A stretch of 64,000 bases of DNA from Tolypeutes matacus (lineage: Eukaryota > Chordata > Mammalia > Cingulata > Chlamyphoridae): positions 426,439 through 490,438 of the forward strand of contig JAKSZT010053769.1 in NCBI GenBank assembly GCA_026826555.1. Reading direction: 5' to 3'. Positions 12,516 to 46,710 of the stretch are shown here, piece by piece. The position numbers and the translations under genes were made by a program. The stretch's first letter is position 1; each line of letters begins with the position of its first letter. The notes below the pieces were generated by a model. The model was not told where the DNA came from. It was given only the letters and a program-made list of their open reading frames with translations, and did not search any database.

Positions 12516-13290
12516 TTTTTAAAGCAGTTTATTTTTTTCTGTCAGTGTAACATTTTGATATATTATTTTTACATTAGAAACATTTCAGGATTACAGATAA
12601 TTCATGGAAAAATACAATGTTCACATATACTCTGCTATTGTTGATACTTTGTATTTGTGTGGTACTTTTTATATATATATATTTTAAAAGATGCGTAGAT
12701 TATATAAATGTTATACAAAAATTACAGGGATTCCCATGTTCCCCACCTCCCACACCTCCCATAACATCCCACATAAACATCTTTCATTAGTGTGGCACAT
12801 CACCTGCAATGGATATACACATCCTGGGGCTTTGCCACTAAGCATGGACCATAGTTCACATTGTAGACCACACTCTCCCACACAGTTCTGTATGGTATAT
12901 GCTGATGTAAAATGGCCTATATCTGTCATTGTAATGTCGCTTAGGATAATTCCCAAGTCCTGAAAAAGCCCCTGTATTACAACTGCTTTTCCCTTCCCTG
13001 CCCCGAAAGCGTCCAGTGGCCACTGGCTTCAACTCACTCCTGTAATTTCTTCCATTGCTTGAATCACAATATGTCGACACCAGAATATCATTAAGTCCAC
13101 TCTAGTCCATAGCTCTTCCCCCAATCTTGAGGAGTTTGGGATGGTGATGTCCAGTCCACCTCCAAGTGAGAGGGGGCCCATATCCCATGGATATGATGGA
13201 TGGGATTATCCTGCTTGCAGCTGCAGGCTCTCTTCATTCCCTGGGATGGCCGTTGTCCATCATCATCTCCTCACCAGGTGACTTGGGTGA
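12516..13290 (-). mobile_element. 5'-truncated L1 (3' UTR only), armadillo lineage
   Basis: On the minus strand this is L1 3' UTR: a TCACCTGGTGAGGAGATGAT-like start, GCCACACTAATGAAAGATG, GGGAGGTGTGGGAGGTGGG, and an AT-rich end. The poly(A) appears as T-runs at 12511-12520. A perfect 13-bp TSD, TCTATTTGCTTTT, flanks it at 12503-12515 and 13291-13303. Opposing frames at 12691-13080 are not genes. Confidence 0.92.
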
Positions 13291-29265: not shown

Positions 29266-29852
29266 ACTTACCAGTAGCCCAAACTCAATTACAATTTTTG
29301 TATTCCATTACTTTTTCTCTTCAGAGGAATTAGCAACACAGAGCTGTCATTAGCCTTTTCTCAGGAACATCCATTCTTCTCACCAGATTATTTTTCCCTC
29401 AGATATGACTGGGTTAGAGTGGCTCCCATGGTTTTTGGAACACAAGATTCCTTAGACACTTTATACACCCTTATTAATAACAAATAATTCCTGGACATCT
29501 CAGGGTAAGTAGAGGAAAGAACAGCTGTAAAGGGAAATAGAAAATGTTTGTTTTATGTATTCATCCACGGTTATTTTTAATTTCTAATAGCGGGTGCTAC
29601 AGCCAATGCAGACAATTAGCATGGGAAGGCAAAATTCATGTAGAGATATACTGACACCTGGTGGAAGAGAGAAAACATGAACTAAAAGATCGTTTTAAAG
29701 AAGTTTGTTTCCTAAAATTTAGCAGTGTATTTAGTGCACATAACACTTTGAAACACAGAAAAATTTTGGAATAAATAAAAATTAGACTAGAGAAACACAA
29801 ACCTTCCCGTACCTAATACACTCACTTTCTTACAATTACGTAGTCTGTCTTT

Positions 29853-31206
29853 TTTTTTTTTCCTTAGTGATTGATCATTTATTGTTGCTCAAAAAATACA
29901 ATTTGCTGTAAAAAATTGGCATGGTTGCTTATGGTGTATCATACCAGATCTTACTGCATCATTACATAATATGTATTTTATGTACCTTGTAACTTTCTAA
30001 AACTTAAAATTCTGAATTCATGAACACATTTTAGCTAATGTGTATTATATAAAAATTATGATCTGCATTTGAGAATACAAGTACAATTAACAAAAATTTT
30101 ATTTGTATTCATAAAAATAGAAAAAGTTAAATGAAAAAAATATCAAAACTGATTCAATATTTAAGGACATTTTAATGTTTCTTTAACCACTTAATGGAAA
30201 ATTAAACTTTTTTTTTTTTTTTCATTTGGGAACTGTTTATTCAGAGTTCTACCTTTTTTTTTAATTAATTTATTTTTTATCGTGGGTAAAAATCAAAATT
30301 TTCACAATACATATCAATATTTGTAAAATGAGATATAAATATATATGCATATATGTGCATTTGCTTGCAAAAATGTTATTTATATATATATAAATATATT
30401 TTAAGAGGTACTTAGATTACCTAAAATATTACACGGAACCCACCGGGATTCCAAGTTGCCCACCTCCCACACTTCCCACCACATCCCACACAAACATCTC
30501 CCATTAGCGTGGCTTTTGGAATCTGTGCTAATGAGAGTGACAGAATTGGACGCAAATTAAGTCCTCCCTGCACATGGTTCATCAGTTCCTTCTATTCAAA
30601 CCTATATGTGATGCTGGAGTTTTTAGGTATACTTCCAGAGACTGGAGCCTCTGGCCTACCTATATGCCAGGTGTGCATGGAATCTCGGTGGAGCTGCAAC
30701 TCCTACCCTACAGCTCAATGGACTCATCCAAGTCACCTGGCGAGGAGACAATGATCGGCAACGGCCAGCCCAGGGAATGGAGAGGGCCTGCATCTGCAGG
30801 CAGGATCATCCCACCCACCATTTCCATGGGATATAAGCCCTCTCTCACTTGGAGGTGGAGTGGACATCACCATCCCAGTCCCCTCAGGATTGGGGGAAGA
30901 ACTATGGACTACAGTGGACTTGATGGTATTCTGTTGTACACATATGGTGATTCTAGCAATGGAAGAAATTATAACAATGAGGTGGAGCAAGTGGCCACTT
31001 GACACTTTCGGGTCAGGGAGGGGATGTGTAGTTGAAATACAGGGGCTTCTTTAGGATTTGGAGGTTGTCCTGAGTACCGTTGTGGCAACGGATGTAGGCC
31101 ATTTTAAATCAGCACACACCACTCAGAACTGAGTGGGAGAGAGTGTGGTCTACGATGTGAACTGTGGTCTATGGTTGGTGGCAAGGCCCCAGGATGTGTA
31201 AGTCCA
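29853..31206 (-). mobile_element. L1 insertion: 5' inversion and 3' transduction
   Basis: One insertion is bounded by a TSD of about 15 bp with one mismatch: TACGTAGTCTGTCTT (29837-29851) and TACATAGTCTGTCTT (31207-31221). In minus sense, 30514-30263 is L1 3' UTR ending in an A-run (T-run at 30254-30262). Then comes a 31-base non-L1 piece with AATAAA (30236-30241) and an A15 run (30208-30222). Next is about 345 bases of non-L1 DNA with AATAAA (29878-29883), and last a terminal A-run (29851-29861). On the other side, 30515-31206 is L1 sequence in plus sense that ends about a dozen bases short of where the minus part begins. This is the twin-priming pattern. Open frames at 30509-31054 are L1 3' UTR and not genes. 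Confidence 0.82.
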
Positions 31207-31339
31207 TACATAGTCTGTCTTTGAACATTACAGTTTTCAATCCCAGGCTAATTATCTGCTTTTTGATTTACAATATTTTAGTGTCCCTACCTAGACATGG
31301 TACTGTAAATATTAAAGACAACATATGTCAAATAAAAGA

Positions 31340-41378: not shown

Positions 41379-41648
41379 CCATTGAGGGTGGTGGGCCACA
41401 CTTGTGGGAGTGTTTGTGTGGGATGTGGTGGGAGGTGTGGGAGGTGGGCAACATGGGAATCCCGGTGGGTTCTATCTAATATTTTAGGTAATCTAAGCAC
41501 CTCTTAAAATATATTTATATATATATAAATAACATTTTTGTAAACAAATGCACATATATGCATATATATTTATATATCATTTTACAAATATTGGTACGTA
41601 TTGTGAAAATTTTGATTTTTACCCACAAAAAAAATAAATAATTTTTTT
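41379..41648 (+). mobile_element. 5'-truncated L1 3' end
   Basis: The plus strand reads CCATTGAGGGTGGTGGGCCA, GGTGGGAGGTGTGGGAGGTG, AATATATTTATATATATATA, then TTTTGATTTTTACCCAC and an A-rich end. It is the same subfamily as the minus part at 30263-30514, in the opposite orientation. A weak 8-bp TSD (TAAAAAGT at 41371-41378 and 41649-41656) may flank it. Confidence 0.82.
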
Positions 41649-45753: not shown

Positions 45754-46710
45754 GTTTTATTTTTGCTTTTTCTTTTTTTTTTTCTGTATTTTTTTTAGAG
45801 ATTTTTATTTTTAAAGAAACTTTAGATTACATAAATGTTACATAAAAAATACACAGGTTCCCATATGCCTCCCTCCCTCCCCCTCCCACACTTTCTCACA
45901 TTAACAACATCCTTCATTAGTGGTTTCATTTGTTACAATTAATGAACACATATTGAAGCATTGCCACTAACCATGGATTATAGTTTACATTATAGTTTAC
46001 ACTCTGTCCCACACAATTTTGTAAGTTAGACAAGATATATAATAGCCAGTATCCTTTATTGCAACATCATGCAGGACAATTCCAATGTCCCAAAAATGCC
46101 CCCATACTGCACCTATTCTTCCCTCTCCTTCCCCTCAGAACCTCTTGTGGCCACTGCCTTTATATCAATGATACAAGTTCTTCCATTGCTAGAATAACAA
46201 TAAGTCTTTAGTAGAATAATAGTAAGTCTACTTTAGTCCACTGTTCACTCCCCAATCTTGAGGATTTAGGGATGGTGATGCCCACTCTGCCTCTAATTGA
46301 GAGAAGGCTTAGATCTCTTGGGGAAGATGGGTGGAACTATCTTGCCTGTAGTTGCAGACTCTCTCTGTTCCTTGAGATGGGCATTGTCCATCATCATCTC
46401 CTTGTTAGTTGTCCTAGGTGAGTTCAGTGAACTGGAGAGTAGGTGTTGCAACTCTGCTGAGATTCAGGGCCCAAGTGACACATGGCTGGACCAAAGATTT
46501 AAGTCTCTTGGATATACACCCATCAAGTATAGTACTAACTATAGGTTCAATTAGACAGGGCAGAAGAGCCATGTGTAGGGAAACCACAAATGAGTCCAAC
46601 TATGTCATATTGGGGAGCATAAATTCCAATGTAAGGTCCACTGACAGGATGCCAAACTCCTGAGCTGTCTGCCCTGCCTATAAAGTCTAGATGTCTCGAG
46701 AGCCTTCAGG
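45754..46710 (-). mobile_element. 5'-truncated L1 (3' UTR and end of ORF2)
   Basis: This is the same 3' UTR module as 12516-13290 but an older subfamily: CCATTGCTAGAATAACAATA, CCCAATCTTGAGGATTTAGG and GTCCATCATCATCTCCTTGT on the plus strand. T-runs at 45755-45797 are the poly(A) tail. A perfect 12-bp TSD, TCTGGTAGTGTT, flanks it at 45742-45753 and 46711-46722. The frames at 46297-46663 are not genes. Confidence 0.92.

What the first reader, a model, noticed from the sequence alone, without database searches (positions are those of the whole stretch)
29853..31206. One L1 insertion combining a 5' inversion with two serial 3' transductions
A TSD of about 15 bp (29837-29851 and 31207-31221, one mismatch) encloses more than an L1. 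In minus sense the order is: inverted L1 5' part, L1 3' UTR, an A-run, 31 non-L1 bases with AATAAA about 14 bases before an A15, about 345 non-L1 bases with AATAAA about 16 bases before an A11, then the TSD. Known biology: twin priming inverts the 5' part with a small junction deletion (about a dozen bases here), and read-through of a weak L1 poly(A) site carries downstream DNA to the new site. Two A-runs, each with its own signal, suggest two successive rounds, so the source lineage can be traced.
Basis: partly seen in the sequence, partly recalled or inferred. Interest (0 to 1): 0.75.

Follow-up and report, generated by a model that had tools for sequence, protein, structure and literature searches.

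The report
L1 insertion with two transduced tails
A jumping gene landed here in one event with its front end flipped, carrying behind it two pieces of DNA that most likely were picked up on two earlier stops, one matching a large tandem-repeat family and one matching DNA near olfactory receptor genes; it is a neat but ordinary kind of insertion.

Summary
A 16-bp target-site duplication (29837-29852 / 31207-31222, one mismatch) encloses one insertion. In minus sense: inverted L1 5' part (693 bp), L1 3' end (260 bp, ending in A9), a 31-bp piece, A15, a 346-bp piece, A9-12. Three L1 copies with the parts in order show 12 bases missing at the inversion, as in twin priming. The own genome (3.6 Gb) gives origins for both non-L1 pieces. 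The 346-bp piece has 39 other scored matches (80-92%); in the two copies checked it lies 2.3 and 2.9 kb downstream of OR4-type olfactory-receptor frames. The 31-bp piece matches a clustered ~2.4-2.6 kb tandem-repeat family. Most copies of both families have an A-run at or within one base of where the piece begins; in the OR family it usually forms an L1 endonuclease site. Read-through from an L1 inserted there would give this, and native flank is excluded. No parent was found: 0 of 39 OR-family and 0 of 8 repeat copies have an L1 abutting the piece, though two OR copies have a sense L1 277 and 745 bases upstream. The source families are named, the source loci are not; template hopping is not excluded. 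A good example of known mechanisms.

The parts
29837..29852 (.). left target-site duplication (16 bp; the last TTT may belong to the tail)
   Evidence: 15 of 16 identical to 31207-31222
29853..29861 (-). final poly(A) tail (T-run on + strand; 9 bases, 12 if the TTT of the TSD is counted)
29862..30207 (-). second transduced piece, 346 bp, AATAAA near its 3' end; copy of DNA that in two checked loci lies 2.3 and 2.9 kb downstream of OR4-type olfactory receptor frames
   Evidence: 39 scored matches besides itself, 80-92%; tree
30208..30222 (-). A15: tail of the inferred intermediate element, merged with the native A-run of the OR unit
   Evidence: native bases before GTTTAA in the family
30223..30253 (-). 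first transduced piece, 31 bp, with AATAAA; matches a clustered ~2.4-2.6 kb tandem-repeat family
30254..30513 (-). L1 3' end (3' UTR), with A9 at 30254-30262
   Evidence: 92.5% to 41395-41643; ten places at 99% over 30254-30330
30514..31206 (+). inverted 5' part of the same L1 (693 bp)
   Evidence: 41 differences in 692 to L042
31207..31222 (.). right target-site duplication (first T shared with L1)

Best explanation
One L1 insertion, the third stop of an L1 lineage. (1) A full-length L1 inserted just upstream of a 31-bp stretch inside a copy of a tandem-repeat family; its RNA read past the L1 end to the next AATAAA. (2) That L1 + 31 bp + tail inserted at an A-rich L1-endonuclease site downstream of an olfactory-receptor-type gene; its RNA read through 346 bp to another AATAAA. 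(3) That RNA was reverse transcribed at the present site by target-primed reverse transcription with twin priming, which inverted the 5' part, lost 12 bases and truncated the element. Shown: TSD, inversion, 12-base loss, tails, the two source families, A-runs at or next to both boundaries in most native copies read. Inferred: the two intermediate loci and their order, since neither was found.
For: Single TSD around everything. Inversion geometry and 12-base loss against three other copies. 346-bp piece: 39 other scored matches, fetched and seen to continue beyond the piece, so it was cut out of a larger unit. 28 of 39 copies have a T-run then a purine run at the boundary, in L1-sense orientation (recounted). 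In 11 of the 16 long group-A loci, 23 of 422 A-runs of four or more (36,720 bases) follow TTTT. 31-bp piece: L051 and L052 and seven further places at 2-3 mismatches, reversed control 1; the four of those seven that were fetched align with the same family. The A-run abuts the piece in 2 of 8 copies and lies one base away in 5 of 8. Each piece ends 13 or 16 bases after AATAAA. Sense L1s do land upstream in such OR units: L042 at 277 bases, L018 at 745.
Against: No intermediate was found: 0 of 39 OR-family copies (58 of 98 first-look candidates never scored) and 0 of 8 tandem-repeat copies have an L1 abutting the piece; L042 and L018 have native DNA between L1 and piece and no 31-bp piece. Only the locus itself spans OR piece + 31 bp + L1 among 40 scored of 630 candidates. 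11 of 39 OR copies do not show the endonuclease-like pattern, and one of 8 repeat copies, L056, has no A-run at the boundary. The 346-bp piece has an end branch of 6.7% against at least 1.9% private changes in the L1 part, so its donor copy is probably absent from the assembly or was already diverged. The nick at the present locus, CTTT/GA, is not the preferred TTTT/AA.
Confidence: 0.85

Rival explanations
1. Template hopping in one event: reverse transcription began on the tail of an OR-region transcript, jumped at its internal A-run to the tail of a tandem-repeat transcript, then at that A-run to the tail of an L1 RNA. No intermediate L1 loci needed.
For: Both pieces begin at or next to native A-runs; no intermediate L1 found. 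L1 chimeras with other RNAs exist (PMC13174262, outline and passages).
Against: Needs two jumps onto unrelated poly(A) RNAs. The mRNA chimeras in the passages read have the foreign RNA at the 5' end of L1, not 3'. In many OR copies the boundary is not just any A-run but T-run/A-run; 23 of 422 A-runs nearby follow TTTT, though in copies that read TTTTTAGAAAA (L009, L011) the boundary itself is not counted among these.
Confidence: 0.07
2. Nested insertions: a plain L1 inserted first, then poly(A)-tailed fragments inserted into its A-tail, their own duplications hidden in the A-runs.
For: Insertions into A-tails are common (recalled); a pure-A duplication would be invisible.
Against: Would need two independent events; 5' truncation of each fragment at or next to a native A-run is not expected.
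Confidence: 0.05
3. 29862-30253 is native flank and the TSD match is chance.
For: None found.
Against: Homology to both families starts and stops at the A-runs; of the units L011 and L017 only this stretch and dispersed repeats match the window; TSD match not reached in 400,000 random draws.
Confidence: 0.01

Closest known systems
L1 5' inversion by twin priming
   Same: Inverted 5' part next to the TSD, short loss at the switch point; twin-priming rate 18.4% in 897 human germline L1 insertions (PMC12016303, passage).
   Different: Nothing beyond carrying transductions as well.
Partnered L1 3' transduction
   Same: L1 + tail + downstream DNA with its own signal + tail; 466 of 5,311 human L1 insertions (8.8%) carry a transduction (PMC12350158, passage); two tails are often seen in partnered transductions (72% in PMC13009371, passage, whose counts there do not agree with each other).
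   Different: Two transduced pieces in a row, both from multi-copy families.
L1 conformations combining twin priming and transduction
   Same: A figure legend lists tails and transductions among features of canonical L1 insertions, grouped into TPRT and twin priming (PMC12350158, legend).
   Different: The legend does not mention two serial pieces; the figure was not seen.
L1-RNA chimeras by template switching
   Same: Foreign RNA-derived sequence joined to L1 in one insertion (PMC13174262, outline and passages).
   Different: In the passages read the mRNA partner is fused to the 5' end of L1; here the pieces are 3' and end in tails.

Membership tests
L1 (LINE-1) insertion by TPRT | flanking target-site duplication | tested here: met
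   15 of 16 bases
L1 (LINE-1) insertion by TPRT | poly(A) tail at the 3' end | tested here: met
   T-run 29850-29861
L1 (LINE-1) insertion by TPRT | endonuclease site TTTT/AA or close to it | tested here: inconclusive
   CTTT/GA at the nick (read)
Twin priming | 5' part inverted, its L1-3' end next to the TSD, small loss or gain at the switch | tested here: met
   12 bases lost
3' transduction | non-L1 DNA between L1 tail and final tail, inside the TSDs, ending after a poly(A) signal | tested here: met
   AATAAA in both pieces
3' transduction | piece derives from another genomic place | tested here: met
   (families, not single donor loci)
3' transduction | source L1 found directly upstream of the piece at that place | tested here: inconclusive
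   not found in 39 of 39 OR copies and 8 of 8 repeat copies read, but 58 of 98 OR candidates and most repeat candidates were not examined, and the donor copies may be lost or unassembled; transduction is held as the best mechanism, not as proven
3' transduction | whole insertion absent from an orthologous empty site | not testable with these tools
   no other xenarthran genome held; own-genome flank searches for a paralogous empty site did not complete

The most novel reading that the evidence does not exclude
A single reverse-transcription event stitched three unrelated poly(A) RNAs (OR-region transcript, tandem-repeat transcript, L1 RNA) by hopping at internal A-runs, and then twin-primed. 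The missing intermediates and the A-run boundaries do not exclude it.
Probability: 0.07. Interest if true: 0.55.

Novelty: new member of a known kind. Interest (0 to 1): 0.25.

Why it matters
It is a worked example of how one L1 lineage can pick up and move DNA in successive rounds, here from near olfactory receptor genes and from a large tandem-repeat family. It also shows a limit of tracing lineages by transduction: when pieces come from large duplicated families, the family is easy to name and the source locus is not.

Tried and rejected
Native flank: rejected. An ERV LTR or a second L1 3' UTR as origin of the 346-bp piece: considered because it is multi-copy with AATAAA; set aside when long duplicated units with olfactory-receptor frames appeared. 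L049 and L050, which seemed to span the 31-bp region, are independent L1 copies with other sequence there. L053 shares 21 exact bases with the 31-bp piece and then diverges: set aside. L042, an OR-family copy with a sense L1 277 bases upstream, and L018, with one 745 bases upstream, as parents: rejected, since native DNA lies between L1 and piece and no 31-bp-like stretch was found in the 1.2 kb before the piece. A known RNA in the stretch: one Rfam match, 24 bits against a cut-off of 90. A link between the 31-bp source family and the OR units: only short weak matches. A local OR source in the window: none seen with L011 and L017 as queries; only dispersed repeats are shared. Serial or nested L1 transduction in print: five searches, seen as listings only; the phrases for serial transduction had no occurrence in any listed L1 paper. 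This is weak evidence, since only part of each result is listed and subscription papers are not held.

Not examined: 58 of 98 first-look OR candidates, 590 of 630 junction candidates, 3,054 of 3,094 tandem-repeat candidates. Of the seven non-self places, four were fetched (L056-L059) and three were not. In one search, 11 of the 16 long group-A loci were used; L014, L015, L017, L019 and L021 were left out. My note says 27 of 39 endonuclease-like boundaries; the recount is 28.

Full report
What is there. The stretch 29837-31222 was read directly. A self-comparison of the window found two L1 copies that settle the anatomy: 12670-13290 matches 30387-30513 in one orientation and 30724-31207 in the other, and 41395-41643 matches 30263-30513 at 92.5%. 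So 30514-31206 is inverted relative to 30254-30513. In three copies with both parts in order (L042, L028, window 12.8 kb) 12 bases lie between them that are missing here. The inverted part ends at the right TSD and the 3' part starts at the internal switch point, the twin-priming geometry. The TSD is 16 bp with one mismatch; the boundary bases T (right) and TTT (left) can be shared with L1 and tail.

The 346-bp piece. I fetched those 39 (20 with about 4.8 kb on each side; 19 with less). Among the 20 long loci the homology continues on both sides, up to several kb for pairs within a group, while in the window it stops at the tail on one side and at the A15 on the other. Reading frames of three long loci were listed (L011, L017, L025). 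Upstream on the same strand, L011 and L017 have broken olfactory-receptor frames: Pfam 7tm_4 at E 4.1e-27 for L017:948-1805 and 2.1e-10 for L011:1812-2231, no family for L011:1575-1811; the best solved structure for the L017 frame is consOR4, E 7.6e-75. The piece starts about 2.3 kb (L011) and 2.9 kb (L017) after these frames. In L025, of the second group, I saw no such frame by eye and tested none but an L1-like one. Two groups exist: 13 rows form one, and the window piece falls in the other, 27-row group, with an end branch of 0.067 and no supported closer partner. Near the 3' end 25 of 39 copies keep AATAAA, 9 read AATCAA and 5 neither.

The boundary. In the family the bases before GTTTAATTTTCC are often AAATTTTTAAAAAA or close to it: 28 of 39 copies have a run of three or more T followed by three or more purines there; 11 do not, some because the alignment starts a few bases off. 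On the other strand TTTTT/AAAAAA is TTTT/AA, the preferred L1 endonuclease site (recalled), and a sense L1 inserted there would leave the junction A-run + GTTTAA seen here. Around the piece in 11 of the 16 long group-A loci, 422 A-runs of four or more occur in 36,720 bases; 94 follow TT and 23 follow TTTT. So a boundary of this kind is uncommon; in copies that read TTTTTAGAAAA, such as L009 and L011, the boundary is a weaker form and is not among the 23.

The 31-bp piece. At up to 3 mismatches the full 31 bases occur only here. A 27-base pattern from its first part finds three more places: L051 and L052, which are 81% alike over 389 bp, and L053, which shares 21 bases only; reversed control 0. 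A 27-base pattern from its last part finds seven more places at 2-3 mismatches, reversed control 1; four of them were fetched and align with L051/L052. L052 as query has 3,094 first-look candidates; the 40 scored match at 83-100%, many in clusters. L054 holds two copies about 2.3 kb apart at 84%, and other clustered hits lie about 2.6 kb apart. So this is a clustered tandem-repeat family with a unit of roughly 2.4-2.6 kb; only reading frames were looked at for coding. Of the 8 copies read, the A-run abuts the place where the piece begins in 2 (L051, L057), lies one base away in 5 (L052, two in L054, L058, L059), and is not there in 1 (L056). After the piece the family reads on into AAAATTTC or similar where the window has its A15.

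How it works. Read-through of an L1 at the first place, then at the second, then insertion here with twin priming, explains the order of parts, both poly(A) signals, both boundaries and the single TSD. The 5' inversion must belong to the last round, since an inverted, truncated copy has no promoter (inference). The L1 end here reads CACGATAAA where L028, L018, L021, L049 and L050 read CACAATAAA; a weakened signal would favour read-through, but the change may have come after insertion, L042 and window 41.6 kb differ there too, and a second AATAAA follows.

What speaks against it. Neither intermediate L1 was found. None of the 39 OR-family copies has an L1 and tail abutting the piece. Two have a sense L1 nearby: L042, 277 bases upstream, whose L1 is 93.9% identical to the inverted part here, and L018, 745 bases upstream; both have native DNA in between and no 31-bp piece, so they are not parents, but they show that sense L1s of related kinds do land there. 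L033 has an antisense L1 fragment 44 bases up, and in L028 family homology breaks within about 17 bases of the site. None of the 8 tandem-repeat copies shows an L1 in the tens of bases read before the piece. The junction query scored 40 of 630 candidates and only this locus spans all parts. The L1 part has at least 13 private changes in 675 (1.9%), while the 346-bp piece has 6.7% on its own branch and 28 differences in 343 to its best relative. If its donor were in the assembly a closer match would be expected, so the donor copy may be missing whatever the mechanism; this makes the missing source L1 less telling. Both families are highly duplicated, the kind that assemblies lose or collapse (inference).

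Known or new. From passages: twin-priming rate 18.4% in 897 human germline L1 insertions (PMC12016303); 8.8% of 5,311 human L1 insertions carry a transduction (PMC12350158), and a legend there names tails and transductions as features of canonical TPRT and twin-priming insertions; two tails are often seen in partnered transductions (PMC13009371); in dogs about 1.8% carry a transduction that could be mapped (PMC12458276, preprint). Chimeras by template switching are described, with the mRNA partner 5' of L1 (PMC13174262, outline and passages). I therefore file this as a new member of a known kind.

Noticed in passing
L054 (G000:C4591:205500-209500) and L055: A clustered tandem-repeat family with a ~2.4-2.6 kb unit, copies about 83% alike, 3,094 first-look candidates in the genome, 40 scored; not identified further.
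   Followed up: partly
L049 around 270-320: Another related L1 ends A10 - 17 bp (GTAACCAGACACAAAGC) - A19, which looks like a short transduction too.
   Followed up: no
L042 (L1 277 bases upstream of the OR-family piece) and L018 (745 bases): Sense-oriented L1 copies just upstream in OR-type units, not parents of this insertion but of related kind.
   Followed up: partly
L028, just upstream of the OR-family piece: Family homology breaks within about 17 bases of the same A-rich site; the sequence beyond looks like antisense L1 (recalled, no call names it), so the site may have been hit more than once.
   Followed up: partly
window 41395-41643 and 12670-13290: Two further L1 copies related to the one in the finding, at 92% and about 80-83% identity; a more distant one at 45946-46581 (68%).
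   Followed up: partly
L009-L024 versus L025-L028: The two groups of long OR-type units share only about 570 bp (150 up, 343, 80 down) at about 82%, while members within a group share up to several kb. Why this stretch is kept is not explained.
   Followed up: no
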